A DNA stretch of 64,000 nt from positions 7,502,001-7,566,000 of the forward strand of contig CAUWAG010000003.1 of the NCBI GenBank assembly GCA_963556695.1. The letters are read 5' to 3'. A program made the translations under genes and the position numbers. Below the pieces are notes generated by a model that was not told the DNA's origin, searched no databases, and saw only the letters and a program-made list of their open reading frames with translations. How positions within the stretch are numbered: position 1 is the first letter of the stretch; each line of letters starts with the position of its first letter. Origin of the DNA: Anthostomella pinea. Its lineage: Eukaryota; Ascomycota; Sordariomycetes; Xylariales; Xylariaceae. Positions 14,486-63,063 of this stretch are shown here, one piece after another.

Positions 14486-14803
14486 GACGAGAAGAGGCCT
14501 GGGACAGCCCCTAACCTCCTCTCTTGATTATGAGATAAGACATCGATGCATTCTTCCTTTTGTATATAGCTGCAATGAAGTGTTTTGGAATTGGGTGGTT
14601 AGGAAAGGACTGGCCTGAGCATACAATAGGGGCAATGCATCCGGATTTGAGGCGTTCATATCTGATGAAGACGTTATATACCAGCTGATCGCAGCGCAGA
14701 TTGCACATTCAGACATGAGACAGAAGATAGAAGACAGAAGATGACTTTGTCAGATGAGGGGCATATTGAAAGTGTATATCTACTATAAGACAACCATAAT
14801 CTA

Positions 14804-15009
14804 CACTGAACCCTCATAAGTCTCCGTACACGACCCTTCCACGGTAAATTCACCAAATCGGAATAAGCACACCGGAATAAGCAGTTAGATCTGTATTAGC
14901 CATCCCTGACGCTTATTCCAGGGTGCTTTATTCCAGTATTTCCAACTATCCCACTGGTTTGCTGGGATATTGCCAACATGGGCGTACGGAGACTTATGAG
15001 GGCTGAGTG
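14804..15009 (+). mobile_element. MITE copy 1, about 206 bp, TA-flanked
   Basis: The ends are inverted repeats of about 26 bp. The left end starts CACTGAACCCTCATAAGTCT and the right end, reverse-complemented, starts CACTCAGCCCTCATAAGTCT. The dinucleotide TA flanks both sides (14802-14803 and 15010-15011), as expected for a Tc1/mariner-type insertion. Inside is a second nested inverted repeat built on GGAATAAGCAC and GCTTATTCC. It has no coding capacity. It aligns along its full length, in opposite orientation, with the element at 38546-38754. Confidence 0.85.
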
Positions 15010-15011
15010 TA

Positions 15012-15725
15012 TCCATTTGCGCTATGTGAACACGACGCATTGCTTTTTTGCAACGGCCCGTGGCTATGAAATTCTGTCTGGTTATTGCCTACGGTAGCTG
15101 TGCCATCAGGACCCCTCTGGTGCAGTTTAGACTAGTGTAGTGCTTTCTAATGCAAAGGCAGAAGTTGCGAGAGGAGGACCTCGTGGTTTAGGTACATTTC
15201 CCAGGACTCCAATCTGACTGCTATTCCCCAGCATACTTCTCGTTTTCGTCAAGAACGTCTTTGGTGCATGGGTATTTTCAGTGAGCACTTGGAAGCACTA
15301 CTGAGCCCAATAAAGCTGTGACTTGCTCACCCAGAATGTTCTGTGTGCTGCAAATTGAAAGGGTCTAGGCTTCCAAAGATGATTGAAGTGGAGAATCAGC
15401 TGGTGACAGCCTGAACTGCCTGACAGGGGGATCGACGTTGTAATCGACAGCCGCAACTGGCCCGAGCTTCATCAAGCGTCCCGAAGAAACCAACCATCAG
15501 CTCCAATGCGCCATCATCCGCCTTGAAGTTGCAACGGTTACCTACCTCAACTTTTGTGCACAACTAAAGTACTACGCCTAAGTTTTGGATCATTGCCCTG
15601 CATACCGTCACTTATTCTCCGCACCGGTGCTCTCTCGCTGCTACACGAATGAGGACCTCACCACAGCATGTGAGAGCGACGTCCAACTCTCCCCGGTGGC
15701 TACTCGCGTCGAATGAGGTGGAGCT
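15012..15725. other. Intergenic region
   Basis: About 0.7 kb between the MITE and the DUF1746 gene, serving as that gene's upstream region. Nothing else was recognised. Confidence 0.45.
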
Positions 15726-28451: not shown

Positions 28452-29638
28452 ATGGCCACCCTCTTCACGCAGGCTGACGTGTCTACTCCATCAGTAGGCG
28501 TCGAGCATCAGGCGAGCATCGATGGCGATCCCATGTCGATGAGTGTGACCATCAGACAGGACCCTCTATCTGTCACACTAGACGGCCCTGCCATATTCGG
28601 CCTTTCTCTCTCCCTAATACTGGTTATACACCTCCTGCAACCTAGGGTTGCCGTCTTACTCATCTCCTTGGCCACCGCGGCCTTGTTCATCCACAACGAC
28701 TTCCGCAACTACCTCAAACTCGGTCCGGGAGGCACCCCGCCAACCTTTACCGGTTACCTCAAAATCAACTGGCTCAAGCTCTGGGCGCTACGGAATCCCT
28801 TCGATCCTCTTCCAGCCGACCCAGATGTTCAACCATCAGCCGGCGTCCTTCACAGGAAGCCCCTCCCCTACCGCTGCGGCGCACGCCCAACAGTCGTCGG
28901 CATAGCACCGCAACGCCAGGTCGACCAGCTCGGGTCCCCGGAATGTTACCTGGCCCTCCGCCGCATTCTCGAGAAGCACGGCGAGACGAACCACGACGAG
29001 ATCGGCCTGGGCACTTCCTGCTTCGAGAAGCACGGTCTGGGTATATTCGCCCGCTATCCTTTCAACAACACGTGCCAGGGCGAGATCTGCCACGTCCACG
29101 GCTCGGACCACTCCATGCGTATGTACATTTTCGAGTCTCTTACTTCCCCATATGGCCATGTCCAGGGCGCGAATTTCCTCTTCTAGCCCGTGTCATGCTC
29201 CCGAGACACGCATTACGACTCCATTTTACTCCACAAAACATCTAAAAGAAGTAATTGCTGACTCTAATTTGCTTGACGACCTGAGCCTACACCCGGACGA
29301 CGTGAAGGAAGTGCTCGAGAAGGGCTGGGGACAGCGGTACGTATAAAAACATCCCGTCCCAAGACCCTGAGCCTTGTATTCGGGATCAAGCTTTGTTGTT
29401 CCCTTTCCTTCTTCACCTAGAAAATGGCCGTACGGGTTCAAAGACAGGATGTTAACGTACACACAGTCACCCCCTGACGAGCCAGGGCCTGCTGAAAATG
29501 CCCGTACCGAAGCAGTTCACCATGGTCTACGCACCGCGGACGATGGATGAGCTCAGGGTCGTCTGTCAGATCATCGAGGCGGCTGGGTACTGGGTGATCG
29601 GAAAGGAGATGCGGCTGGATCTGGAGGGCGAGCTATAG
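28452..29638 (+). CDS. Luciferase-domain (DUF5519-like) membrane protein carrying two introner-like introns
   Basis: Best model: exons 28452-29118, 29279-29336 and 29467-29638, giving 298 residues. A hydrophobic segment at about residues 45-78 (IFGLSLSLILVIHLLQ and after) suggests a membrane anchor. The soluble part has RPTVVGIAPQRQVDQLGS, FARYPFNNTCQGEICHVHGS and SDHSM, then LSLHPDDVKEVLEKGWGQR, and finally FTMVYAPRTMDELRVVCQII. This matches the fungal luciferase-like domain family. No light-producing activity is implied and the function is unknown. The second intron is canonical. The first begins with GTATGT, but the expected acceptor before ACCTGAGC reads GACG, not CAG. Restoring one A would give an intron of the same length as its relative in the carbamoyl-phosphate synthase gene. 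An in-frame AAAAG at 29248 is an alternative acceptor and would add ten residues (308 in all). Confidence 0.65.
29119..29278 (+). mobile_element. Introner-like element family A, copy 1
   Basis: The whole of intron 1 of the luciferase-domain gene aligns with the intron at 60785-60945. Shared blocks are GTATGTACATT, GAGTCTCTT, ATGGCCATGTC, GCGAATTT, CTCCCGAGACACGCATTACG, AACATCTAAAAG and CTGACT. The host genes are unrelated and the intron phases differ (phase 1 here, phase 2 there). The 3' limit given assumes a damaged acceptor. Confidence 0.8.
29337..29466 (+). mobile_element. Introner-like element family B, copy 1
   Basis: Intron 2 of the luciferase-domain gene (130 nt, phase 2) aligns end to end with the 131-nt intron of the dehydrogenase gene at 36679-36809, about 80% identical by eye. 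Shared blocks are GTACGTATA, CAAGACCCTGAGCCT, GCTTTGTTGTTCC, TACGGGTT, ACAGGATG and AACGTACAC before the acceptor. The ends GTACGT and ACGTAC are mutually inverted. Confidence 0.85.
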
Positions 29639-30199
29639 AAAGATGAGGGATATAAACAAGAGGGACGCTGTGGAGCGGACAACAAGCCTTACATCACAAG
29701 CTAAGAATTGCCAGCTTGAGAACTCACAGCCTGGCCGATGGCCTCTTCCACATGGACAGTGGTGTTCAACCAGCCGGAAGCGAGCGATTCTGTTGCCAGG
29801 CATCATCTCCGCGTGGCGATCGGTCAAGAAAACACTTTCTAGAAAGCAGGTTACCTAATAATAAGCATACGGTAGCCATCCCAACAAAGACTGGTCTTGG
29901 CAGAATTCATGTGATACTTCACCGATGAAAGACTTCCCATGTGTAATGAGAGGGTTTCAAGCCCGCAGTCACTCGCTTCGGTCAGGCAAATATATCAAGA
30001 AGATCTACGCCTTTTCGAGCCTCAAACTTGCGTAAATGCTGCAGCAGTGTGGCTTGATGTTGAATATGTCACAAGACTCGACGTCGGCTCCCAATGCAAA
30101 GCCTTGGATAGTAAGGTATATACAGAGTCCATCATGCCTCACCAACACAAGCAAGCGACTAAGCAAGCTCAGATACCTGTATCCTTTCTCTTCTCCTGT
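29639..30199. other. Convergent intergenic region
   Basis: About 0.56 kb of 3' flanks of two convergent genes. Nothing was recognised. Confidence 0.45.
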
Positions 30200-31696
30200 C
30201 TAGGCCGGTGCGGTGCCCTTCCAGTACTTGGTAGCCACAAACGGCATCTTAGTGACGACGGCCTTGCGCTTGCGGCCCCGCACCACAACCTCGACCTCGG
30301 TGCCCGCCTTGTGCGACCCATCCTTGACGTAGCCCATGGCGATGTTCTTGCCCAGCGTCGGGCTGGGACACCCGCTGGTGACGACGCCGATCTTGCCGCC
30401 GTCAGCGCCATCAACGATCTCGGCCCCCTCGCGCGCGGGCGCGCCCTCGATGACGAAGCCGACGCGCCGCCGCTCGACGCCCTGACCGCCCTTGCTCTTG
30501 GACTTCAGCTGCGCGAGGATGGCGTCGGCGCCGTGGAACTTGTCGGCCGCGGCCGGGTCGCGGCGGTCCTTGCCGATGATCCAGCTCAGCGCGCCCTCGA
30601 CGGGCGTCGTGGTGTCGTCCAGGTCGTGGCCGTACAGACACATGCCAGCCTCGAGCCTCAGACTGTCCCTGGCGCCCAGACCGGCGAGCTGCAGTCGCTC
30701 CGGGCCCGCGGTCTGCAGCAGCGCCTCGGTGATTGCCACGGTGTCTTCGGGCGCGATCGAGATCTCGAACCCGTCCTCGCCCGTGTAACCGCCGCGGGAG
30801 ACGAGCACGGGGCGCGAGAGCTCGCTGCCGCGCAGCTTGAGCTTCACGAAGCGGCTCTGCCCGAAATACAGCTCGCGCAGCTTCGCCTCCTCCGGCACGA
30901 GCAGCAGCTCCGCGAGGATGTCCTCAGCGAGCGGGCCCTGCAGCGCCACGAGGCCCCAGCCATCGAGGACCTCGTGTCGGACCTCCTTCTCCTTGCCCTC
31001 CGCTGCCTCGTTGCGCCACGCCTCCAGCTGCTCCGCCAGGTACTTGAGGTCCTTGTCGCGACAGGCGGCGTTGGTGACGACGTAGAACAGCTCAGGTCCC
31101 AGGCGCGTGATCACCGTATCGTCGACGATGCCGCCCGAGCCGGGCCACAGCAGCGTGCTGAGCGTGCTCTGGTGCGCAGGCAGCGCTGCGATGCTGCCTG
31201 GCGTCACGCGCTGCAGGAATGCGGCTGCGCCGGGGCCCTCGAACCGGTGCTGCACCATGTGGCCGACGTCGAAGAGCGAGGCCTTCTCGCGCGTGAAGTG
31301 GTGCGAGGCGCTTACGCCGAGCCCGGAGTATTGCACCGGCATCTCGAAGCCGCCGAAGGGCACCATCTTGGCGCCGTGCGCGAGGTGCAGGTCGTAGAGG
31401 GCCGTCTTGCTGAGGGGGCCTGTCGAGAGGCTGTCGGGGGCCGATGCATAGTGTCTGCTTTGGGTGGTTCGTAGAGGAGTGGCGTAGGACGGGAAGGTTC
31501 GGAGGGCGTTGTTTACCCTGTGGGAGGGAAGGAGGAGGCTTTGTCGTTGGGACTGCGAGCTCGTTGGTGCTGGAATGCTGGTCGTGAGCGAAGCTGACGA
31601 TGATGCTGCCCGCGCGAGCAACTGAGTCTGTTGTTTCGACCTGGAAAGGGCAGATGCTTCCTTCCTGGCCCTGCTAAGGGCTTTAGAGGACTTCAT
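30200..31696 (-). CDS. GCV1: Mitochondrial aminomethyltransferase, T protein of the glycine cleavage system
   Basis: This intronless gene encodes 498 residues. The T protein takes the aminomethyl arm of the H protein and, with tetrahydrofolate, releases ammonia and 5,10-methylene-tetrahydrofolate in the mitochondrial matrix. An unusually long leader (about 85 residues, Arg/Ser/Ala-rich, few acids) precedes the start of homology at TALYDLHLAHGAKMVPFGGF. Conserved folate-site and core motifs include MPVQYSGLGVSASHHFTREK, SLFDVGHMVQHRF, LWPGSGGIVDDTVI, SRGGYTGEDGFEI, LGARDSLRLEAGMCLYGHDL and IGVVTSGCPSPTLGKNIAMG. The C-terminal barrel ends with FVATKYWKGTAPA. The sequence is GC-rich at third positions, as for RCL1. 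The Met at 31696 is the only one that leaves a complete targeting leader. Confidence 0.95.
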   Translation of the reverse strand: MKSSKALSRARKEASALSRSKQQTQLLARAASSSASLTTSIPAPTSSQSQRQSLLLPSHRVNNALRTFPSYATPLRTTQSRHYASAPDSLSTGPLSKTALYDLHLAHGAKMVPFGGFEMPVQYSGLGVSASHHFTREKASLFDVGHMVQHRFEGPGAAAFLQRVTPGSIAALPAHQSTLSTLLWPGSGGIVDDTVITRLGPELFYVVTNAACRDKDLKYLAEQLEAWRNEAAEGKEKEVRHEVLDGWGLVALQGPLAEDILAELLLVPEEAKLRELYFGQSRFVKLKLRGSELSRPVLVSRGGYTGEDGFEISIAPEDTVAITEALLQTAGPERLQLAGLGARDSLRLEAGMCLYGHDLDDTTTPVEGALSWIIGKDRRDPAAADKFHGADAILAQLKSKSKGGQGVERRRVGFVIEGAPAREGAEIVDGADGGKIGVVTSGCPSPTLGKNIAMGYVKDGSHKAGTEVEVVVRGRKRKAVVTKMPFVATKYWKGTAPA

Positions 31697-33109
31697 CTTC
31701 GATCAACTGCAGGTGGTCGAGAGTCAATTAAAAACACCCTCCAAGCCGGATCCCAAAGCTATGAAGCTCCCGGGGGGAGGGGAGGAGCTCTGTATTCAAG
31801 AAAGGCGGTACGGTACCCCGTCAATTATGGCACTGCACCCCTCGCACACACAGAAGGAAATCTCAATTGAGTTGGAAATTGCTGCAGCGGACTGATCCTC
31901 GGAACTGTTCATTACTTACAAACGCGAAGTTCAACTGTCCAGCCCTTCATTAGAATTTGGGGATATATTCGCAACTCGATCGTGCAGGTACTACGTGGGA
32001 GGTCACCTTCGGCCAGGACGCCGATCGCGGCAAGAGCGGGGCAGTTATGTAATAAGTCGGTGTGGTCACTTTGGGACCGTTGGTGTTGGCATGAAGACTG
32101 ACCCCCCGAGATAAGAGGTTATCACCAGAAAGTACGTCCAAGTCGACCTATGTGCAGGTAGGGTATCTAGGTACCTATAGGTATATATAAACCCTCAGAT
32201 GACCCGACATCTACTTCAGAGTGCTTTCACTACGTTCAAGCCGGTCATCAATGTCATTCTCGACGATCCTCACGAGCTTGGGATCATGGTCGCGTACATG
32301 AGGTTCGACTTGCCCCTATTATATGAGAATGGCCCAGACGAAGCATGGTCCTCTAGAACTCGTCCCAGCACCATCAGCATAGGGCTCGCAAACATAGCAG
32401 AAATCGTATAACTGACAGGACCTCCAGCTCATCTGAATCGCAATAACATGGTCAAAAAGCTCAACACCGGAACATAGCACACACACACGCTGGCATGCCA
32501 AGCGGTTTGTGGGCGGAAAGTCGAAGCGGAATAAGCAGCAGTTTAGTGGTTATCATCCAGTTGTCCCCGGAATACCTACTCAGTCGAGGTAGGTACGCAA
32601 TTTATCATGTTAACAGCTTGCGAGTGTTCCCGTCGGGACCCGTGCGTAGTGGCATTATAATAGCCACATGAATAGGGAAGAACAAATCTTATTAGGAGTG
32701 AGTACGATGGGAAATGCCTTGAGAGTGAGGTCAGGTCAACGATTGCCCTCCCACGCCCGAACAGACCCGATGCGAGGAAACCTCTCGCACCATATGCCTT
32801 GAACACAACGCAAGAAGATCTCTTTTGCATTCCGTAATGTCAATTCGTACAAGTTCCTCCCAGTACGCCCACACCCCTTTTCTTTCCGAAATCAGCTTTC
32901 TGTGTCAGACCAGAATAGTAGGTGTCGCCCCGAAAAGGGGAGTCACTTTGTAGGCCCACCAGAAGAGAGGATAGGATACCGAGATGACGCGTAATTTATG
33001 GACTATATCGATTGCTCCGGGAAATGACTTGCGAGTTACAACCAGCCCATCACGAATGGGGGGGAGGAGACACTCGGCGCGATTCGGGGCTGTTGCTTTG
33101 TCTATTCCT
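31697..33109. other. Intergenic region
   Basis: About 1.4 kb that includes the GCV1 upstream region. An AATAAGCAGCAGTTTAGTG segment near 32531 resembles sequences near the ATIC-type gene. No gene was supported. Confidence 0.45.
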
Positions 33110-34999
<1,890 letters not shown>

Positions 35000-35719
35000 A
35001 TGTTTTTCTCGACCAAGGCCCTCTTCGTAGCCGGCTTCTTGCAAGCTGTCCTCGGCCACAACATACAGCTCCCTGCCCACGGCCGGGAATGCTTCCACGA
35101 GCAGCTCCACAAGGACGATGTCATGACCGTCACCTTCCAGGTTGGCGACAGAGAGTTTGGCAGTGCCGGTAACCTGGACATCGACTTCTGGGTATGACAG
35201 TCAAGCACCCAACTCAATTCCCTTGACCGAGGCTTACAAGGCCTCGTACAGATCACGAACCCTCAGGGCCAGTACGAAACCTTCCAGAAGGACGTCTCCA
35301 ACGGCGACTACTCCTTCACGGCCAAGCACGACGGAAAGTTCCTCTACTGTTTCGGCAACGAACATTGGGGAGCAAACAGCAAGGAGGTGTCTTTCAATGT
35401 CCACGGCATAGTATACGTCTCAGAAGCCGATGCTCCTCAGGACCCCCTAGAAGCAGAGAGTATGGGAGCCCCTATTCCATGGGTACTTGAGCAGTTGTCT
35501 AACACACTCGTAGTCAAGAAACTCTCCGAACTAGCCAGCCAGGTCAAGGACGAGCAAGGATACATCGTCGTCCGAGAACGCACCCACCGAAACACGGCCG
35601 AGAGCACAAATAGTCGAGTCAAGTGGTGGAATATGTTCGTGATTGGGGTCGTTATTGGCGAATCGCTTTTCCAGGTCTGGTGGCTACGGCGATTCTTTGA
35701 GGTCAAGCGTGTAGTTTAG
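35000..35719 (+). CDS. EMP24: Emp24, p24-family cargo receptor of COPII vesicles
   Basis: Three exons (35000-35191, 35252-35459, 35514-35719) give 201 residues. p24 proteins select cargo such as GPI-anchored proteins and shape vesicles between ER and Golgi. A signal peptide (MFFSTKALFVAGFLQAVLG) leads to the GOLD domain with HNIQLPAHGRECFHEQLHKD, FGSAGNLDIDFW, LYCFGNEHWGANSKEVSFNV and HGIVYVSEADAPQDP. A coiled coil (EIKKLSELASQVKDEQGYIV) follows, then RERTHRNTAES and one membrane helix (MFVIGVVIGESLFQVWWLRR). The short tail FFEVKRVV carries the FF export motif. The second intron is 54 nt, a multiple of three without stop codons, so its retention would insert 18 residues. Splicing it out restores the family sequence. 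Confidence 0.92.
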
Positions 35720-36063
35720 GATTCCTGCGGTTGGCGTCTTCTGCGGCGGGTTGTATCCCATTGTTGGTCTGGGTAGTCTGGCGCATCAAGGACTGGCATG
35801 AGAAGGACTACAAAATCAGGACGGTTACGAAGTGGAGCACCTTGTACATTTTGTTATACTAATGAACACAACAGACTTGTCTCATTCCTCAGTCACGGTG
35901 TCTGTTGCACTTTGAGTCTCATGGCCGAAAACTGTCGAAGAAAGCGCAGAAAACAGGTTCCTATAAGTCTAGGTATGAAGATAAATCCAACATCAATGAT
36001 GCTCTACTTGACTTCAAAGCCATTTCCCACCTCTCAAAATCTACCACAGGGCTCTCAGACAGT
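35720..36063. other. Convergent intergenic region
   Basis: About 340 bp of 3' flanks of EMP24 and the dehydrogenase gene. Nothing was recognised. Confidence 0.45.
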
Positions 36064-37154
36064 TCAAGGGAAGCCGTTCAGACCAAGGATCAACTCCGGC
36101 GTGTTAGCAATCTCATCCTTCCTCTGCTTCAACTCCTCGACATCCCATCCAGCGAACACAAACTTGTTCTTCAAGAACACAGCCTCATCGCTCGCAGCCC
36201 AGACCAGGAACTGAGCCGGGAGATTGACTGCCGCAAACCCATCGTCAGCGGATCCCCTTCGAAACACACCCAAACAAGGTGTTCACCGTGAGCGGAGGGA
36301 AATAGGGGGTGTGTCATCAAACTTACTATCGTCACTCGGCCACTCCATCCCAGACTCCTTGGTCATCTTCCGCCCCATCTCCGACTCGCCCACGATGCCG
36401 GGATGGATGCCCACGACGCGCATCTCAGGGTTCTCGGCCCCGAAGAACTCCATGACTTTGATAGCGGCCAGCTTGCTCGCCGCGTACCCGGACATGGGCA
36501 TGGCCGCGTTGGCCGGGAACAGCACGCCCGCGGTGCCGAGCTGGAGCACGACGGCGTCGACGGCAGCATGCCTGGCCACGGCCCGCGCCAGCACGGCCGC
36601 GCCCTTGACGTTGGCCTCGAAGCCGAGCCACCAGTCCTCGAGGTCGGCCGTGGCGACGGGCGCCAGGCTGGCCATGTGCTGCGTGTACGTTACCATCCTG
36701 TGTTCAAACCCGTATGCCACATTTCCTAGATGAAGAAGAAGAAGGAACAACAAAGCTCGTTCTCGAAACCGAGGCTCAGGGTCTTGTGATGGGATGTTTC
36801 TATACGTACCCCGGTGCAGTTGACCACGACGTCGACGGCGGAACCACCGAGCCGGGCCTTGGCGCTCGCGAAGGCGTCGTCCATGCCGTTCGCGTCGTTG
36901 ACGGCGAAGTCGAGGATCTCGGCCTTGGGATACTGCTTCTTGAGCTCGGACGCCGTGGCGGAGACAACATCGGCGCGGCGCCCGGTCAGGGCGAGGCGCG
37001 CGCAGCCGGCTTGCAGGAAGGCGAGCGCGGTGGCCTTGCCGATGCCCGCGGAGCCGCCCGCGATGAGGACCGTCTTTAAGGCGGCGGAGAGCTGCGGCAG
37101 GGATAGGGAGATGGCCGCATAGGGCTTGTTGTGCTGGATCTTGGTGTAGTTCAT
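36064..37154 (-). CDS. Short-chain dehydrogenase/reductase
   Basis: Three exons (37154-36810, 36678-36327, 36227-36064) give 286 residues, normal for a classical SDR. The Rossmann start is VLIAGGSAGIGKATALAFLQ, a variant of TGxxxGIG. VVNCTG is the NNAG-like motif and GYAASKLAAIKVMEFF holds the catalytic Tyr-x-x-x-Lys. A proline-glycine loop HPGIV follows. The C-terminus is NLPAQFLVWAASDEAVFLKN, then FAGWDVEELKQRKDEI, as in many fungal SDRs of unknown substrate. Cofactor preference and substrate cannot be read with certainty. Intron 1 (36809-36679, phase 0) is a near copy of intron 2 of the luciferase-domain gene. Intron 2 (36326-36228) is ordinary, with donor GTAAGT and acceptor GGCAG. Confidence 0.88.
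36679..36809 (-). mobile_element. Introner-like element family B, copy 2
   Basis: The first intron of the dehydrogenase gene, 131 nt, phase 0, begins GTACGTATAGAAACATCCC and ends AACGTACACGCAG on the minus strand. It aligns along its full length with 29337-29466. The hosts are unrelated and the phases differ, so shared ancestry of the genes cannot explain the likeness. Confidence 0.85.
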
Positions 37155-38543
37155 GGTGACGGTTGGGATCGGTCGTACTTTTGTGAGTGGCAGTTGGTGG
37201 AGAGGTGATGAGGCTAGCGAGGAGCGAGGGGGTCAATGAAGTTGGTATGAAGCGTGTTGAAGACTCTGGTGAGCTAGTACTGCATCATTTAAAGCAGGTG
37301 ATGAATGTCCTGCCTTCATAGACTTCTGGTCGATGCGTCCCAGGGTGCGTCGTCTGTCCATATCTCCATACCACCAGCGGAGGCGCGCGCTTGGTTCCGC
37401 AGTGTCATTACAAAGAGTATTGCTTTCATCAGCCTGTTTCATAGCAATGTGCCAGAGCAATGTCCATTTCTTCGAGCGACACCAGCATCAGGGACGGATC
37501 CTCGATTTACAATCGCGGAATGGATACTGCTGGGTCTGGTGTGGTGGATGTGGCGGTTTGTCATCCCAGAGGTTGGACCGCGGCCGTAGATTGACTTGTA
37601 AGCAGCTGGATTGAACATACCCCTGGACCCACGCACCAATGTGCCTTGCAATGTATGTACTTTCTGCGCATATTACAGTCATATACTCCTTGTGTCGAGC
37701 TGCATTACATCTCGAGCACAAGTTAGGAAGCAGGCATTTTGGGAATTTAGCGAGGATTAGAAAAGAACGAGACAATAGCCCTGGGAGCTAAGTTGAAAAG
37801 TGTTTGGGTTCAGTTTGAGGTGGAAGTACAATAAACGTTCTGTTCCGATGTCCATATTGTTAGCAATGCATTCACCCCGATATTGGGAGTTCTCTTCCTC
37901 CTGGTGATGATCACTTTAACCGCAGTTTTATCTCGGCTGATTCCCAAGCCCTGAAGTGATATAGTGGCAAGACTAGCACCTTGTTCTTGTACAGAGACCC
38001 TACGATCCATTCACGTGCCATATGTGAGCGGGCCATACTGTATTTACTCTTTCAATATGATGTTTAGACCCCTCTGACCCGTTACATGGTCAAATTGCTA
38101 TGCGTGCCACCGTTCGAGCAGTGTCCCAGAGCTACTCCCCCTGGTCACATGGCGGTGACGTATTTCTTTGCCTTAGAATCTTCGTACTAGTTGTACTAGA
38201 TGTGCTCATACTCTAGGAAGAGTCTGCCTCTGAGGGCAAAAGTCTTGCTCAACGTCATGGTCACTAGTCGGGCATCATCTACTATAGGTTAAGGATGGGC
38301 TGTATCACATTGCAGCCTCGGACTCTAGCACCGTGGCATATATGATCAAATACAGTGAGTAGCGTAATGCCGGTATTCTCCCACAAAGCTTACCTGTCTT
38401 GTATCATCCATGAGTTCTAGTGTTGTCCATGGCATGTCTGATATAAGCATAGCTGATGAACGAAGCCATCTGGCGAGCAATGTTTCCGATGGCATCACAC
38501 GCACCGAGGATTGGCGGAGTGACATAGTGACAACGTGTGAAGA
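37155..38543. other. Intergenic region
   Basis: About 1.4 kb upstream of the dehydrogenase gene, up to the MITE. No gene was supported. Confidence 0.45.
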
Positions 38544-38545
38544 TA

Positions 38546-38754
38546 CACTCAGCCCTCATAAATCTCCGTACGCGCATGGTAGCAATATTCCAGCAAACTA
38601 GTGGGATAAATAGAAAAACCGGAATAAGCACCCTAGAATAAGCGTCAGGGATAATAGAGATCTAACTGCTTATTCCGGTGTGCTTATTCCGATTTGATGA
38701 ATTTACCGTGGATTGTTGGAAGGGTCGTGTACGTAGACTTATGAGGGTGCAGTG
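38546..38754 (-). mobile_element. MITE copy 2, about 209 bp, TA-flanked
   Basis: This is the reverse orientation of the 14.8-kb copy, about 85-90% alike by eye over the full length. Left end CACTCAGCCCTCATAAATCT. Right end, reverse-complemented, CACTGCACCCTCATAAGTCT. TA flanks both ends (38544-38545 and 38755-38756). The inner core TCTAACTGCTTATTCCGGTG is shared exactly with copy 1. Confidence 0.87.
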
Positions 38755-38756
38755 TA

Positions 38757-40919
38757 CCTCCCGCACCTACTGCAAGCGAAACTTCAAGGTAGCACTACTC
38801 TAGAGGCCTCCTCAAACTGTCAGAGCCGACAAATGTGTCGAGCCGGCGGAGCTCTCGTGTCAATTTTAGCAAGCTTAGTACCAAGTTCGAGGCAGCACCG
38901 GAAGCTATCTGCTGATATATCCATCCATCCGTCCTTCCACGTCTATACACAAACTTGCAAGCCAAGCTCACATGTGAAGAGGCAACTAAACAAAGTTTTC
39001 CCAGCAGCCACACTACGAAGCCTATCGTCCAGCCCTTCTTATCTACGTGCGTACCAAGAGCGGTACAGGATATATATACGAGTCTATTAGGTTAATTTGG
39101 TAGCCGGTTTGGTACGGCCTAGCGAATAGCGAAGTATTATTTATATATTCTTAGGCACAGCGGTTCGATTCCTCTAGCGGTTGACACATTCCCTTTTTCC
39201 TTTTTCCTTTTCTTTTGGACCCTTGGCAACAGAAAGACAGTTATTACTTGACGAGAACTGGACACTGACAATTTAAACAGCGTCGAGTTCACCTCGGAAT
39301 ATTTTCTACCCTACAGCACCCTGAAACCACACCATTAGCCACCAGATGAACAATACTGGCTTTACTCGTCTCCGCGTTCCTGGTATGAAGGGTGTTTTCA
39401 GGGGCGGGAACAAGAGAAGGCGAAACAAGAAAGCTATAGCCCAATACAACTACATACTCCAGGAAGCCAGTATGATTCTGTCCATATATTCTCCTAGGAA
39501 TAGAAGCGCGGTTGATAATTACATAAAAAACACTACAGCCTACCAGCATTGACGGAAACAGCCAATTCACCCCCTTGAAATCCAAGGTCTTGCTATTTTC
39601 CCTCACCCGATGATCCCGACCCCAGCTCTCCCACGTCCACTCCAGTTCCGCCTAAGTCAATTTCGCCTCCGCCAGCACGGCCTTCGGAGTGTGTAGACGG
39701 TGCGCCACAGCAGCGCAAGTCTCACAAGCTTAAAACCCTGCTGTACATCCTCATCATCATCATCATCATTTCGTACGCCGCATAAGCGACCAGCGTGATC
39801 CCATCATTATCATCACCACATCAAGTCCAACTCCATGAACCTTCGTTCTGCCGGCCGAGCCCATAAAGTTGCTACAAACGGCGACAAGAGACTCCTTAAC
39901 CCGCCCCCAATAAGGTTCAAGGAGAACACGCCGGATTTGCCCTGTGCGTCGAATGAGTGAGTTTTAAAACCTGCTAGAAAGCGACGCCCAAGAACGAAGG
40001 ATCGACTTCCTACGATGCCTTGGAGGAACAACTAGCGAGACCTGGATCCTCCGAGTGGCCTCGCAAGAGCCCTCCAGTGATAAGAGTAAGGTGTGAGAAA
40101 AACAAGATGTGTGACGTACTAGGTACCTGAGCAAGACCAGGAAAGGAAGGCGAAGGGGATGTGTATATACATGCCAATATAGATCAAATATTGTTCCAAA
40201 GTCAGTACTAAGGATCCCTTGAGATATGGCTCGGCGGATTTGATTCAAGACATTGGCCTCGTCATAAATCCCGAACCGTGCATCTGTGCCAACTGGTTAA
40301 AGCATATCAACCCATCCCGTCTTGTATTCTCCCCTGAGACGTGAGGTAAGATCTGGCTCCCTGTCGGTCATGCTACCGCGCGCGACCGCTTCTCGGATAT
40401 CACGTTCGCGTACATAGGGTCTTACCAAGGACTGGCGGCCGAATGGATGATTGTATTTACAGACAGTCCATGGATCATGTCGAAGAAGTGAGGTGGGTGA
40501 CCGAACTGGAGACATCACTTCTACTTACACTTACACCTGCAACCGGCAGCGATATAGCTGTCAAGGATGAAACGCATCGATGGTCCGCGTCCATGAGCCT
40601 GACAGCAATTTGCATCATCACGAACAGGAGACGAGGCAAGAATACAGTCGATGCAGTAGTGAATCAGCTGCAACTTCAACGCCAAGTATACAAAAGCTAC
40701 CAACTGACGCAAGCGAAGCCGCCCAATGCAATGCAATGCAGAGCTGAAAGACACGATGCCAACCCGATGCAGATGGGTATCCAGATGCACCTGCTCGCTA
40801 CATAACGCCAATTGTACCACATACACAGCCCCGACCAGATCTATGAACTTTTCCGTTCCCTTTTCCTCTTCTCAATAGACGACCACGGGGACCGTAGATG
40901 TGTCTGTTGATCCGTTGAA
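38757..40919. other. Long intergenic region
   Basis: About 2.2 kb between the MITE and the 3' end of the SulP transporter gene. It has a pyrimidine tract near 39190 and a TCA microsatellite. A degenerate tRNA-like B box (GGTTCGATTCC) near 39160 lacks good stems. No gene was supported. Confidence 0.45.
39751..39769. repeat. (TCA)6 microsatellite
   Basis: Six copies of TCA lie in the intergenic region, followed by imperfect ATCATC repeats. Confidence 0.85.
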
Positions 40920-44431: not shown

Positions 44432-46642
44432 TGTGGTGGTCGAGCGTCGGCTCTATGAGTGGTAGCTACCTATACACATGAGAAATACACGGTGCGCAAT
44501 CACGTCACCGGCAAGTGGTCGGTCTCGGATGTCGATATAGCACAACTTCTCCCGTAATAAAACAGAGGTAGCAAGAGTAACAGAGTTAAGGCATATTGAC
44601 AGTGAAGAAAATGCCTATGTAGAGGCGGCGAAAAACGGCAAACGGGGAAACGAAGGTGTCATAAAAATTACCTCGGGTCGAGAAGATAGGCGACGATAAC
44701 AAAGTAGGTTTATTATTACCGTTTTGCTCTTAAAAACGCCGTCACTAATAAATTTGCCGGCCCCGCGCTACTGTATGGTAAGTGGTGCTACACGCAATTA
44801 TAGCAGTGTGGCAGAGATTCGGAATCCAGGCCTCGAGCTGTCATTGGGCAATGGCTCCGCGGATGTCAACGTCGAACTGGAGACATGGTGACGAGTCTGT
44901 GAGTCCCCGCCTCAGGCCTGCACGAGGGTGGTGACTCTGCAGGTGGTGAGTTATATCCATTGCCCAGGGCAGCCAGGGTCGGCTCGAATCGTGCATGCCG
45001 CGTGTAGTATTGTGTACGGCATCATAACGCAACCACGGTCCACCTCATCTACCTCGAATACCTCGTAGCTTTTGCTCTGGGACTCGGAGAATGCTGGAGA
45101 TTCGCCATGTGTGTTTGGAGCTAACTGGAAGGTCACGACCCTCCGCTGATTAGTCCATAGCATTAGGATTTCTCGTTGAAAGACTTCAACGCCGTTCGGC
45201 CATAGGAGCCCCTCGTTCCTGGGATTCTGGAACCTGCAGGTGGTCTGCGGCCTGCAGGTTACATGCAGCAGCAGTGCATCAAACCATCCCTGCTCTGCCT
45301 GCGTGCCGCCGACATGCCGACTGCGGAGACCTTTCTCAGGTCTTCCTCAAAGACAAAGACAGTGTGAATTGGATTTGGAACAACCCAGCAACATGAAGCC
45401 TTCATGTTGGAGGCTGAATTGGCTGACTCGTTCTTTAAAAGCAGCGGACCGTCGATAGGTCGAATCGCGACTCAAGCTTTCTCGGAAGACTCCGCGTTGC
45501 AGTTCCGATCTGATAAGAACCCGTCCACCGTCCGCGAGCCATCCTCCACGTCCGGACGGGAGCCCCGTCTTCTGAAGGCTGAAGCTCTAACTACCCACTT
45601 TGGGAAGTGTGCAGAAATTCCTACTCTGATCCCGGATTCTCTTACGTACCAGGAGACTTTGGCATGCATTCGTCAGGCCTTTGGATGGCACGGGGGCACC
45701 ACAACGGGACGGGGCCTCCCAACTCGGTCGCGGTCACTGGTCGGTCCATTTCCCACGCAACCAACCGAGCAGCCCGAGTGGCAGCTTCTTAAAACTTTTC
45801 ATCGTCAGCTGTGTGACCAGACACACCAGAGCCTCCAACTTTTCTCCACCTCCAATTCGCCTATTCGACAATGCTACTGGCAGAGTGAGCCCCGCATCCC
45901 CTCACGCAGGCCTGTGGTCCCTCTGTCCCTGTGATACACTCGATTCGTCGACTATAACACGCTAATATGTTCTGTCCTGCAACATGAACCAGCAAGAGGC
46001 ACAGGTGGGTGAGTATGCCGCAGCTGCAGCTCGTCATGTTGTGAGATCAAGACGTCGTCTTGCCTCGCTCACCAACTGTCGGAATTGGGAGATCGTCATA
46101 TTGTGTGATAAAGACGTCTTGCCTCGCTCACCACCTGACGGAAATTCGCATGTGAGTGACAACTGTATTCTTGCCGATTCTCCAACTCTTTGCTTTTTAA
46201 GTCTATATGCCGTCTTTAGTGGCCAGCCAAAATACCTAGATATGGCTCGATGGTGACTGCTTCTCTTGACGAGGTTACGCAATCATGCTGTTCTCCTCAC
46301 AACCTCACGATAGGGAGGCAAGGGAGGAGGCTGCTTCGTGGATTCACGAGGCAGCCCACCATTTGTCATGTAGCCAGATGTTTTTGGACTCACTCGTATG
46401 AGTGGCTGCAGCTCCGGAATGTCCTCAGTGCCAGTTGCTTCCGCACGCCATGCCCTGATCCTGCTGCGTCATAGCCCATGCTGTTTCTATATCACCATGA
46501 GTCCACATCAGCATATCACCCAAGGGATTCCGATACATGTGACTTGTATTTCTGTCCGAGCCTGATACGATATGCATGCCTTTCGACCATGGACCGGTCC
46601 AGACAACTCGATATGGCAAGCCGTGGAAGCCTTCGAAAGCTC
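44432..46642. other. Long intergenic region
   Basis: About 2.2 kb upstream of the SulP gene and downstream of PSF1. It contains an imperfect direct duplication (listed). The longest open frame (45404-45934, 176 codons) has no recognisable features and was not accepted. Confidence 0.45.
46031..46146. repeat. Imperfect direct duplication of about 55 bp
   Basis: Units 46031-46086 and 46093-46146 share TCGTCATRTTGTG, AAGACGTC, TTGCCTCGCTCACCA and GACGGAAATT-like blocks. They differ by a 3-bp indel and several substitutions. Confidence 0.8.
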
Positions 46643-57367: not shown

Positions 57368-57946
57368 AAAGCTGGTGATGATGATGAGGCACACTGCGAG
57401 ATATGTCGAGGTCGGACAAGGCCAGGAGGCACGCGGAATTCACGATGTTTATTAAGGACGGGAGCGGGTCGCCGTTCGGTCCTACCGCCCGTCTGGACCA
57501 AGGAACCGACGTCATACTCATCGGGGCGTCGGCGGCCAACTTCCAAGTGCATCCATCGTGCCTTGCCTAGGCTCGACGGTCCCGTCTACAGTTCCCAGTC
57601 GTGACCTTGATCAACGACCTCAACATACTATTCCTTGCGGTCACACATTTCAACTTATAAAAGTTCTTAACTAGAAGAATCTTGGCGAATCTTGGCAGTA
57701 TACTCAACTGTCCCGCCCTGGGTTCACCAATGCCTATGGCCCCTGACTCGTCACTCCTGAGTGTACCTGCATATGCAGATACCTTACGTGGGCTGAAGAT
57801 TTCTGCGCCGCCTTTACATGCCACTCGGTCTCTCTTCCAAGGTTATTATTATGACGGATTGCTGCGGTGCCATTGAGCTCAATACAGATGGCATCAACGA
57901 GTATCAGTTTCGTGAGCAAGGGCTCTTGAGAGTTGATCATGAACTA
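57368..57946. other. Intergenic region upstream of the ECM3-like gene
   Basis: About 0.58 kb up to the fold-back element. No gene was supported. Confidence 0.4.
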
Positions 57947-58173
57947 CCGCATTTTCCGTGCAAGCTGACTACGTCGGACACGGTCCACCATGCATTATCT
58001 CATCGCCAAGCCAGACAATCCACACCTAATTCCTTATTGTGTTGACGATAGATCGGCATGATCGCAGGCTTTTCCAGGTTCCCTGTATCTTTTAGCCAAT
58101 GAAGACAGGCATGGCGATGAGATAATGCATGGTGGACCGTGTCCGACGTAGCCAGCTTGCACGGAAAATGCGG
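57947..58173. mobile_element. Fold-back element, 227 bp, 66-bp arms, TA-flanked
   Basis: Arms 57947-58012 and 58108-58173 are inverted copies that differ at only two positions of 66, around a 95-bp centre. The outer ends start CCGCATTTTCCGTGCAAGCT on either strand, and TA lies directly outside both ends. Near-perfect arms and TA borders fit a young non-autonomous Tc1/mariner-type element. It is unrelated in sequence to the CACTGAACC MITEs. Confidence 0.87.
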
Positions 58174-58670
58174 TACAGGGGATTCATTGAACAGCCAGAG
58201 AGACTTTTATGAAGTACCAGACTCCCACACAATTGTCGCCGTGGAACGTTGTTCATAACGGTACACGGCGGTTGGACTGCGTGAACCTATTCCTGGGTAG
58301 TAGTATCGTGGAGTTGTACAACACGCGATTGGCTGAATGTTTAGAAGGGTCAACAGGAGTGAGCCCCTCATGCTCCGGAAATCGCAGGCCAGCAGAAAGT
58401 TTTTCTTAGCTGATAGTTGGATTTTTTGCTCCTTATCGGCTTATCTGTCCGCTAACATGGCAGCGCTGTGTGCTGCTATCGGCCGCCGCCAAATTTGAAC
58501 TTATTATTATCACACCTTGCCTTGCCTTGTATGAGTCGACATACCACCAAAGCCTGTCAATCTTCCCGAACAGAGCTCAATTGACTTCAATTGAGAGTTG
58601 GGCACACTTTCTGCCGTCTTGCGAGACGTTGATACTTCAACCTCTCCAGGACACGAGCTCCTAGACCGCC
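58174..58670. promoter_or_regulatory. Upstream region of the carbamoyl-phosphate synthase gene
   Basis: About 0.5 kb between the fold-back element and the start codon. No TGACTCA-type general amino-acid control site was seen. Confidence 0.35.
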
Positions 58671-61600
58671 ATGGCTCTCTCCACCAAGCTTGTAGGCCGC
58701 GCGCCTGCTCTGCTCCGACATGGTCGACGTCTGCCCACCACCCTGCCCCGGAGGCAATTCACGGCCGCCACAGCCCGGGCACCATCACAAGCCCTTGCTT
58801 CAAGTCGAGCCTATGGCTTTGCCCAGAAGCGAACCTTCACTGCGACGGCAGCTTGCGCCAATGCCAACGCCGCCGCCGCCCAGGAGGCCCCTAACCCCAA
58901 GGCCTACTTGGAGAGCGGCGTGATCAAGCCGCGGGATATTGTGGATGTCAAGAAGGTGCTGGTTATTGGAAGCGGTGGCTTAGCCATTGGACAGGCTGGA
59001 GAGTTTGACTACTCAGGTTCGTCACCCGAATGCCGCAGACTGGCAGTTAAGCATGAGTCACAGTACAACTGATCCTATGAACGCTAATACCTCGCGTGTA
59101 AAGGTTCGCAGGCCCTCAAGGCCCTCAAGGAGGCTGGCGTAGCCTCCGTGCTTATAAATCCGAATATTGCTACCATCCAGACCAACCATGTCCTCGCCGA
59201 CGAAATCTACTACTTGCCCGTCACCGCAGAATACGTGACCCACGTTATCGAGAGGGAACGGCCAGATGGCATCTTCCTGTCATTTGGTGGACAGACCGCG
59301 CTGAACCTGGGTGTGCAGATGCAGCGCATGGGCATATTCGAGAGATACGGTGTCAAGGTTCTGGGCACAAGCGTGCACACTTTGGAGTTGAGTGAGGATA
59401 GAGATCTTTTCGCCAAGGCCCTGAACGAGATCGATATCCCAATTGCCAAGTCCATTGCTGTTGGTACAATCGACGAGGCCATTGACGCAGCCTCTAAGAT
59501 CGGATATCCCATTATCGTTCGTGCCGCCTACGCCCTTGGTGGCCTTGGTTCCGGGTTCGCGAACAACGAGGAAGAGCTCCGCAACATGGCTGCTCGATCT
59601 TTGACTCTCTCGCCGCAGATTCTGGTTGAGAAGTCGCTGAAGGGCTGGAAGGAAGTCGAATACGAGGTTGTCCGTGACGCCAACAACAATTGCATTACGG
59701 TGTGCAACATGGAGAACTTCGACCCCCTGGGAACTCATACTGGTGACTCTATTGTCGTCGCGCCCAGTCAGACTTTGAGTGATGAAGAATATCACATGCT
59801 TCGTACCGCTGCCATAAAGATCGTGCGTCATCTAGGCGTGGTCGGCGAATGCAACGTTCAATATGCCCTTCAGCCTGATGGTCTCGACTACAGGGTCATC
59901 GAGGTCAACGCCCGTCTTTCACGATCATCAGCTCTCGCTTCCAAGGCTACTGGATATCCCCTAGCCTACACGGCCGCGAAAATAGGCCTCGGCCATACCC
60001 TGCCTGAGCTGCCCAATGCCGTTACGAAAACGACGACCGCTAACTTCGAACCTTCCCTTGACTACATCGTCACAAAAATCCCTCGCTGGGATCTGGCCAA
60101 ATTCCAACACGTTAAGCGTGACATTGGCAGTGCTATGAAGTCTGTGGGTGAGGTCATGGCTATTGGACGTACCTTTGAGGAGTCTTTCCAGAAGGCGATC
60201 CGGCAAGTTGACCCCAAGTTTGTGGGCTTCCAAGGTGACAAATTCGACGACTTGGACTATGAGCTCTCTCACCCGACAGATCGACGATGGCTGGCTGTTG
60301 GCCAAGCGATGATGCACGAAGGTTACACGGTCGACAGGGTCCACGAGCTCAGCAAAATCGACAAGTGGTTCTTGTACAAGTTGCAAAACCTCGTTGATTG
60401 CACCAAGGAGATGGAAGCTGTCGGCAGCCTAGAGGGTCTCAAAAAGAATCTCGTCCTCAAAGCGAAGAAGATGGGTTTCTCTGACAGGCAGGTCGCCAAT
60501 GCAGTCAAAAGCGACGAGGATTCTGTCCGTGCCCACCGTTTGAGCATGGGCATCCGACCTTGGGTGAAGAAGATCGACACACTCGCGGCTGAATTCCCAG
60601 CGGACACCAACTACCTGTACACCACCTATAATGCCAGTTCTCACGACGTCACTTTCGAGGACAAAGGTACCGTGATCCTCGGTAGCGGTGTGTACAGAAT
60701 CGGTAGCTCGGTCGAATTCGATTGGTGTGCTGTCAGTGCCACTTTGGCTCTGAGAGAAATGGGCCAGAAGACCGTTATGATCAAGTATGTACATTCTAGA
60801 GTCTCTTTCCCTTATGGCCATGTCTTGGGGGCGAATTTACTCTCCTGGACTGTGTCAAGTGTCTTGGCTCCCGAGACACGCATTACGGCACCTTGGCTCT
60901 CGAGAAAACATCTAAAAGGAGCAATTACTGACTGTTTTAACCCAGCTACAATCCCGAGACCTACAGTACAGATTTCGACACTGCTGATAAGCTCTACTTT
61001 GAGGAGCTTAGCTACGAGCGAGTCATGGATATTTATGATCTCGAAAATGCTTCTGGTGTTGTTGTGTCCGTTGGTGGCCAACTCCCGCAGAACATTGCTC
61101 TGCGTCTGCAAGAAACAGGCAAGGCCAATGTCTTGGGCACAGACCCCAAAGACATTGACAAGGCTGAAGACCGACAGAAATTCTCTGAAATTCTGGACAG
61201 CATTGGTGTAGACCAGCCTGCTTGGAAGGAGCTCACCTCCGTTGCTGATGCGGAGAAGTTCGCTCAGGATGTTGGCTACCCTGTCCTCGTCCGCCCCAGC
61301 TATGTCCTCTCAGGTGCTGCGATGACTGTCATCCACAGTCAAGAAGACCTCAAGGATAAACTCGAGGCTGCGAGCAACGTGTCTCCTGATCACCCTGTTG
61401 TGATTACCAAATTCATCGAGGGCGCTCAAGAAATCGATGTTGACGGAGTTGCTTCTCAAGGCAGTCTGATCGTTCATGCTGTCAGCGAACATGTCGAACA
61501 CGCCGGTGTACACTCCGGTGATGCAACCCTAATACTACCTCCAGCCAACCTGGACGAACACATCATGAGCCGCCTCAAGGAGATTGCTGAAAAGGTTGCC

Positions 61601-62486: not shown

Positions 62487-62914
62487 ATATGTGGCAAATG
62501 CTTCTTACTTTCAACGTTAAGTTATTATAAGGAAATCTAACGCCGTGACGTCTCGCAATTTCCGACGATATCCATTCATCCCAACCATTCGGGCTGGTTT
62601 GGCTAGGCTAGACCAGGTTTGGCTCTAGCAGGCGTTTGAGTCGGGATTTCATCTACTGGGGCCGGCGATGGGATCTCTGTTTTCTCTATTCATGTAGCTT
62701 GCATTGTTGCAAAAACAAAAAGGAACACAAGAGATGGCGCCTGGCATAATGTCGTCATTCGAATTGCAACGAGAAAAGTAAATACATCGCCACCAGCCTA
62801 CAACGTGTCGTTCCATGCCATGAATGCCAATACCTACTAGAGGATCCGCGTGGCGTGGCGGGACCCTCTTCAGCATCATGTTCGTGACCTGTCGACATTA
62901 ATGTCATATTCGTA
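62487..62914. other. 3' flank of CPA2
   Basis: About 0.43 kb up to the truncated MITE. No gene was recognised. Confidence 0.4.
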
Positions 62915-63063
62915 TAAATAGAATAAGCACCCCGGAACAAACAGATTTGATCCAATTAGCCATATTCCATGCTTATTCCGGAGTGCTTGTTCCATCTATA
63001 ATCAATACACAAGGTTTCCGCTTGCTGGATGAGGGGTGTACGGAGACTTTTGGAGGTTCAGTG
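62915..63063 (-). mobile_element. MITE copy 3, truncated
   Basis: The core (AGAATAAGCACCCCGGAACA and TGCTTATTCCGGAGTGCTTG) and one terminal repeat (GTGTACGGAGACTTTTGGAG, then GTTCAGTG) match the 14.8-kb MITE family. The other terminal repeat is missing and no TA follows the preserved end, so this looks like a decayed copy. Confidence 0.7.

What the first reader, a model, noticed from the sequence alone, without database searches (positions are those of the whole stretch)
29337..36809. Same intron in two unrelated genes: introner-like family B
Intron 2 of the luciferase-domain gene (29337-29466, plus strand) and intron 1 of the dehydrogenase gene (36679-36809, minus strand) align end to end at about 80% by eye. 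The shared part begins with the GT of the donor and ends with the AG of the acceptor. Exons do not align, and the phases differ (2 and 0). The ends GTACGT and ACGTAC are mutually inverted, suggesting a DNA element whose termini act as splice sites. Introner-like elements are known in some fungi. Two copies in 7 kb suggest a multi-copy family here.
Basis: partly seen in the sequence, partly recalled or inferred. Interest (0 to 1): 0.88.

Follow-up and report, generated by a model that had tools for sequence, protein, structure and literature searches.

The report
Copy-and-paste introns in pine fungus
Closely similar copies of one 130-base intron sit at more than 90 places in the genome of the fungus Anthostomella pinea, mostly inside predicted genes and in the gene's own direction, and it is likely a mobile intron that would copy itself into active genes at a preferred short DNA motif, which could make the birth of new introns directly testable.

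Summary
29337-29466 (+) and 36679-36809 (-) align end to end (109 of 131 columns) and are bounded by predicted splice sites. The genome is Anthostomella pinea (Xylariaceae). Among 110 fetched loci plus the second window copy, 93 are near-full-length copies; 87 of 93 are called sense in coding sequence; all phases occur; no target duplication was found. This is an introner family. The first 43 nt are shared with a family of at least 20 sister [D1,2] stwintrons in the same genome, the 3' half is not. New: family B prefers YRYG^YR sites (-1 G 64 of 84, never A; RYG 45 of 84, background 7%), while family A and the stwintrons lean to T^A. Papers on other Xylariales report no exonic bias. Side finding: 8 of 21 family A copies, including intron 1 of the same gene (29119-29278), end in CG instead of AG; 11 of 11 aligned orthologues fit that junction. 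RNA evidence is missing. Likely, inferred mechanism: excised, hairpin-folded intron RNA re-inserted into transcribed DNA at preferred sites.

The parts
29337..29466 (+). Family B introner copy 1: intron 2 of the luciferase-domain gene, 130 nt, phase 2, GT-AG
   Evidence: the Pfam Luciferase domain spans the junction; orthologues gapless at GWGQ^RHPL
36679..36809 (-). Family B introner copy 2: intron 1 of the short-chain dehydrogenase gene, 131 nt, phase 0, GT-AG
   Evidence: deposited A. pinea protein P0001 is identical across the junction and 11 orthologues are gapless there; adh_short spans it
29337..29354 (+). 5' arm of the near-terminal inverted repeat, includes donor GTACGT and the motif GTATAAAAAC
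29447..29460 (+). 3' arm of the near-terminal inverted repeat GGATGTTAACGTAC, includes the predicted branch point (TTAAC, A at 29455)
   Evidence: the branch point is predicted from the fungal consensus only
36792..36809 (-). 5' arm of the near-terminal inverted repeat in copy 2
36685..36698 (-). 3' arm of the near-terminal inverted repeat in copy 2 (GGATGGTAACGTAC)
28452..29638 (+). Host gene 1, luciferase-domain protein (298 aa when 29119-29278 and 29337-29466 are removed)
36064..37154 (-). Host gene 2, short-chain dehydrogenase (deposited protein of 286 aa)
   Evidence: start and stop codon read
29119..29278 (+). Family A introner (subfamily A1): intron 1 of host gene 1, predicted GT-CG ends (TTGACG|)
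60785..60945 (+). Second family A copy in the window, GT-AG, inside a frame that reads like carbamoyl-phosphate synthase (name recalled, not searched)

Best explanation
The two introns are copies of one introner family of Anthostomella pinea, with more than 90 near-full-length copies of a predicted GT-AG intron of about 130 nt, which likely spread as excised intron RNA that was re-inserted in sense into transcribed genes at preferred YRYG^YR sites. Shown by calls: the copy number, limits that coincide with predicted splice sites, sense orientation in coding sequence for most copies, all three phases, no target duplication, the site preference, a hairpin fold of the least diverged copies, and a 5' end shared with a sister [D1,2] stwintron family in the same genome. 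Inferred: splicing itself, the RNA intermediate, its protection by the near-terminal stem, reverse splicing or another strand-specific insertion step, and the conversion to DNA.
For: Copies: (93 in all); two further queries, 40 scored of 57 and of 85 candidates, returned only places already held. Introns in genes: stop-free on both sides for at least 15 codons after removal in 92 of 93; frame calls from the two exon sides agree in 68 of 93, shuffles mean 27, maximum 41 of 1000; a Pfam domain spans the junction in both window copies and in 12 of 20 loci taken in order, L002-L021. No duplication. Site preference confined to -4..+2; RYG 47 of 90 against 7.4% of exonic positions, p 2e-29, present in each phase (19/40, 14/27, 14/23). 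Hairpin: z -4.85 for L002, -3.90 for window copy 1. Kinship: first 43 nt against stwintron L111, score 44, shuffle maximum 24 of 500.
Against: No RNA reads or empty sites could be examined. Of 85 joint sense calls only 70 have a positive score, and of the eight antisense calls six stay unexplained. Ten of the first 79 copies do not end in AG at the expected base; 3 of 93 have no GT..AG ends even after a shift. The fold of window copy 2 is weak (z -1.73) and RNAalifold over 90 copies finds essentially no shared structure. The 3' half is not significantly like the stwintron's (14 and 224 of 500 shuffles reach), and the published 3' partner of GTATAAAAAC is in 0 of 90 copies. A definite target motif is not what random break capture predicts, and classic reverse splicing would be expected to favour AG|G-like sites (recalled).
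Confidence: 0.7

Rival explanations
1. Non-autonomous DNA transposon (MITE-like): the inverted ends are recognised by a transposase in trans and happen to hold the splice signals.
For: Near-terminal inverted repeat; a definite short target motif that is roughly palindromic in its core, YG^YR; DNA-transposon introners are common outside ascomycetes (PMC9860276, section 8 and passages read).
Against: No target-site duplication; arms end 6 nt before the acceptor; sense orientation in coding sequence for 87 of 93, while a DNA element should leave many antisense and intergenic copies; no transposase-bearing relative was seen, though none was searched for.
Confidence: 0.13
2. Capture of intron RNA or DNA at random double-strand breaks, as proposed by Fekete et al. 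for Xylariales stwintrons, with no target recognition.
For: Seamless insertion without duplication; same order of fungi; kin stwintrons in this genome.
Against: Strong bias at -4..+2 that differs between families and is not explained by codon phase.
Confidence: 0.12
3. Ordinary old introns made alike by gene conversion or gene duplication.
For: One pair of host genes with long similar flanks carries copies at the same place (L042/L064).
Against: Only that pair of 93 shows long similar flanks, and one other pair a 32-nt match; the copies lie in different genes on many contigs.
Confidence: 0.03

Closest known systems
[quoted passage not shown] PMC12403724)
   Same: Same order of fungi; seamless sense insertion in unrelated genes; symmetric hairpin; consensus 5' end GTACGTATAAAAAC holds the published 5' element GUAUAAAAAC (exact in 27 of 90 copies); a related stwintron family is in this genome.
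   Different: Family B is a single intron, about 130 nt, with over 90 copies (10 type-2 cropped introns were reported in Hypoxylon sp. CO27-5); its 3' half does not match the stwintrons here, the published 3' partner is absent, the branch point lies inside the 3' arm, and its sites are biased whereas the papers report none.
Introner-like elements of Capnodiales (van der Burgt, Collemare et al.; PMC4457414)
   Same: Many similar spliceosomal introns in unrelated genes of an ascomycete, several families per genome.
   Different: PMC8469720 cites an AG/GY site preference for them; family B has AG before the donor in 4 of 90.
DNA-transposon introners (PMC9860276)
   Same: Multi-copy introns with inverted sequence near the ends.
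   Different: No duplication and no co-opted splice site in family B; [quoted passage not shown]

Membership tests
Introner / introner-like element | Many similar copies as introns in unrelated genes | tested here: met
   93 near-full-length copies; flanks unrelated but for one pair
Introner / introner-like element | Similarity begins and ends at splice sites with donor, branch point and acceptor | tested here: met
   90 of 93 with GT..AG, some after a shift of the end; exons unalignable
Introner / introner-like element | Spliced from mRNA | not testable with these tools
   No reads held; only frame continuity, Pfam and orthologue evidence
Introner / introner-like element | Recent gain: absent at orthologous positions in relatives | not testable with these tools
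   The genome search holds no relatives of this genome
Type-2 cropped sister intron | 5' half like the internal intron of a sister stwintron | tested here: met
   43 nt, score 44 against 24
Type-2 cropped sister intron | 3' half like the external intron of a sister stwintron | tested here: not met
   14 and 224 of 500 shuffles reach the score, one stwintron family tested
Type-2 cropped sister intron | Complementary 3' partner of GUAUAAAAAC | tested here: not met
   0 of 90 carry either published sequence in the last 30 nt
Type-2 cropped sister intron | Terminal symmetry, hairpin fold | tested here: met
   In the least diverged copies only: z -4.85 and -3.90; weak in copy 2
[D1,2] stwintron | Internal intron between G and T of an outer donor | tested here: not met
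   Family B frames continue when removed as one GT-AG intron; no inner AG|T..GT seen by reading the alignment
DNA-transposon (MITE-type) introner | Target-site duplication | tested here: not met
   No register above background over 69 copies
DNA-transposon (MITE-type) introner | Terminal inverted repeats | tested here: inconclusive
   Gapped 14 to 18-nt near-terminal repeat, 6 nt short of the 3' end; whole-half comparison reached by 17 of 1000 shuffles

The most novel reading that the evidence does not exclude
Spliceosomal introns here carry family-specific insertion-site recognition without target duplication: family B reads YRYG^YR, family A and the stwintrons read T^A, on the coding strand. 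One spliceosome serves all three, so the intron's own RNA (or a single-stranded DNA copy, as in rolling-circle or peel-and-paste elements that leave no duplication) would choose the target, a mobilisation mode not described for spliceosomal introns; one lineage even spreads with a CG 3' splice site.
Probability: 0.25. Interest if true: 0.92.

Novelty: new variant of a known kind. Interest (0 to 1): 0.65.

Why it matters
How new spliceosomal introns arise is a long-standing open question. For Xylariales the two papers read here describe insertion as seamless and unbiased. A fungus with three co-resident families, best pairs 96-98% alike, and clear but different site preferences gives a handle on the insertion step: the motif can be measured in new insertions, in mutants and in reporters. 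The stwintron kin places the family in an order where intron duplication is reported to continue.

Tried and rejected
Considered and rejected: that family B is a stwintron; that RYG is a codon effect (present in each phase); that it is selection for U1 pairing (A is depleted at -2 and absent at -1); that family A takes its 3' splice site from the target (its last six intron bases fall into a few recurrent types). Noticed but not tested: the target motif resembles B's own 3' end CACGCAG in purine/pyrimidine terms.

Rows dropped before counts: 12 of the first 90 loci and 6 of the next 20 are not near-full-length B copies. Usable ends: 69 of 79, 90 of 93, 84 of 93. The pattern listings show 100 of 115 and 100 of 103 places, so the copy set is incomplete. 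Family A site counts use the window copy and 20 of the next 21 listed matches (one match starting at base 3 was skipped); five further family A copies seen (60785, L031, L041, L042, L082) were not in that count and none reads T^A, which makes 11 of 26.

Full report
What was checked. The exons do not align beyond the G before the donor and, with a gap, CAC after the acceptor. GTACGT and ACGTAC are inverses, but the second lies 6 nt inside the intron end.

Where it comes from. The dehydrogenase protein matches a deposited protein of Anthostomella pinea at 100% over 232 aa on a contig of 8,924,063 bases, the length of contig C2 here. The genome paper (PMC10763133, passages only) gives the same largest contig and N50 and a total of 53.7 Mb. 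NCBI places the species in Xylariaceae, Xylariales.

Copy number. One query returned 40 scored matches of 87 candidates, 85 to 100% alike. The 5'-end pattern has 115 hits against 12 for the reversed pattern, the 3' end 103 against 4. I fetched 110 loci: 30, 60 and 20. A profile built from 26 copies gives 79 near-full-length elements of at least 50 bits in the first 90 loci plus the second window copy (12 of the 90 loci are not members) and 14 of at least 80 bits in the next 20 loci: 93 in all. Two further queries, 40 scored of 57 and of 85 candidates, gave only places already held. Of the first 69 with clean ends 43 are exactly 130 nt. Over 90 copies mean pairwise identity is 80% and the maximum 96%.

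They behave as introns. After removal a sense frame is open for at least 15 codons on both sides in 92 of 93. Codon-usage frame calls from the two exon sides agree in 68 of 93, against a mean of 27 and a maximum of 41 in 1000 shuffles; the joint call is sense in 85 of 93, though only 70 of these 85 have a positive score. Of the other eight, two are sense by Pfam (ATP synthase, PARP) and six have no Pfam match in the sense reading. A Pfam domain spans the junction in both window copies and in 12 of 20 loci taken in order, one of them below the gathering score (L019); two have a match on one side only and six none. The deposited dehydrogenase protein agrees with the predicted splice and 11 orthologues are gapless there. 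A deposited model is itself a prediction, so this is not RNA evidence.

How they sit. No register shows a target-site duplication (largest mean z over an offset 0.7). The exonic flanks are biased from -4 to +2 (84 copies): Y 60, R 67, Y 75, G 64, then Y 56, R 60; A never occurs at -1. RYG precedes 47 of 90 copies or 45 of 84, against 7.4% of exonic positions (p 2e-29), in each phase (19/40, 14/27, 14/23) and in the closer and more diverged halves (25/42, 20/42). Pairing to U1 would favour A at -2 (recalled), yet -2 is A in 3 of 84. The bias is therefore more likely a property of insertion than of splicing.

Structure. The least diverged copies fold into one long imperfect hairpin that pairs the donor GUACGU with ACGUAC: z -4.85 for L002, -3.90 for window copy 1, -2.62 for the consensus, -1.73 for window copy 2. 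Over 90 copies the mean z is -1.1 and the alignment supports no shared structure. A stem present in young copies and decayed in old ones would fit a role in spreading and not in splicing; that reading is an inference.

Kin. Of the 12 non-member loci, four (L043, L055, L080, L086) have their longest open frames when removed as a [D1,2] stwintron (for L080 the margin over a single intron is small). L080 belongs to a family of 20 matches of about 150 to 158 nt. In L080 and eight fetched relatives all nine have an internal AG|TAAGT and a 3' end with TTTTCATAC; six begin GGCATGTATAAAAAC, the others are variants. That is the architecture of the sister stwintrons of Fekete et al. (PMC12403724: outline with abstract, sections 11, 14 and 16, and passages read; PMC8469720: outline with abstract, two of three parts of Results, part one of Discussion and of the legends read), including GTATAAAAAC. 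Family B shares its first 43 nt with them (score 44, maximum 24 of 500 shuffles) but not its 3' half, and 0 of 90 copies carry the published 3' partner. [quoted passage not shown] it works like one.

Other families. Family A includes intron 1 of the same luciferase-domain gene and an intron at 60785-60945; one query gave 40 scored of 98 candidates. In 21 copies the base before the donor is T in 15, the base after the intron A in 14, and T^A in 11, against a background of 2.6% (p 1e-12). Five more, mostly diverged copies seen do not read T^A, so 11 of 26. The nine stwintrons read T^A in 5 (p 1e-6). The families thus differ in site preference although one spliceosome serves all. The 288 stwintrons of 14 other taxa were reported as unbiased; for Capnodiales elements an AG/GY preference is cited in PMC8469720.

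A non-canonical end. Eight of the 21 family A copies end in TTGACG or TTGCCG instead of AG (8 genome matches, 0 in the control). Seven of them are at least 92% alike, but L120, 97% like the window copy, ends in AG. For the window copy, removal of 29119-29278 gives a 298-aa protein whose SMH-LSLHP junction fits 11 of 11 aligned orthologues without a gap, while the deposited model, which uses an internal AG, has 10 extra residues found in none of the 11. In the other seven the internal AG would give a stop in every frame, assuming the same interior. Some junctions read like conserved motifs (nitrilase, sedolisin; recalled, not searched). GT-CG introns are known as rarities, 19 of about 92,000 in Ganoderma lingzhi (PMC11590231, passages). 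An assembly error shared by eight copies is unlikely but not excluded.

Mechanism. Sense orientation in genes, no duplication, exact intron limits and kinship with a propagating stwintron lineage favour an RNA route: excised intron RNA, perhaps protected by the near-terminal stem, inserted into the coding strand of transcribed DNA and copied. The site preference adds a recognition step that random break repair does not predict. Every step after excision is inferred. A DNA or single-stranded-DNA route without duplication remains possible.

Novelty. Searches of the held library for introner with fungi and intron gain, introner-like elements, introners since 2023, stwintron and Anthostomella pinea listed no title or abstract on introns of this species; the genome paper holds no word starting with intron and PMC12403724 does not name Anthostomella. 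Most subscription journals are outside that library. Introners and Xylariales sister introns are known, so this is a new variant of a known kind.

Noticed in passing
window 29119-29278; L119, L121-L126 with L139, L141-L146: Family A subfamily A1: 8 of 21 family A copies end in CG instead of AG; orthologues support the GT-CG excision of the window copy and the deposited gene model there carries 10 spurious-looking residues.
   Followed up: partly
window 60785-60945; L119-L138: Family A is a second introner family (40 scored of 98 candidates) with a T^A lean at its insertion sites (11 of 21; 11 of 26 with five more copies).
   Followed up: partly
L080, L111-L118; L043: Sister [D1,2] stwintron family (20 matches) and a unique stwintron in L043, whose frame reads like a sugar transporter (recalled).
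   Followed up: partly
window 14802-15013 and 38542-38756 (also L022, L050, L070); 62897-63063 with L069: MITE-like repeats with long terminal inverted repeats, seemingly intergenic, not introns.
   Followed up: no
L098, L102: Family B copies without their 5' half that appear to use other donors (GTAAAAAT, GTTCGTTG), in frames reading like aconitase and a GH43 enzyme (recalled).
   Followed up: no
L042 and L064; L093, L095 and L105: Paralogous or repeated host sequences carrying B copies; the L042/L064 flanks are 85% alike, and L093 and L095 are identical over 420 nt.
   Followed up: no
window 38991-39183 (L025); 57945-58012 with 58108-58175; 46028-46143: A dispersed repeat, a 68-bp inverted pair (97%) and a short tandem repeat.
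   Followed up: no
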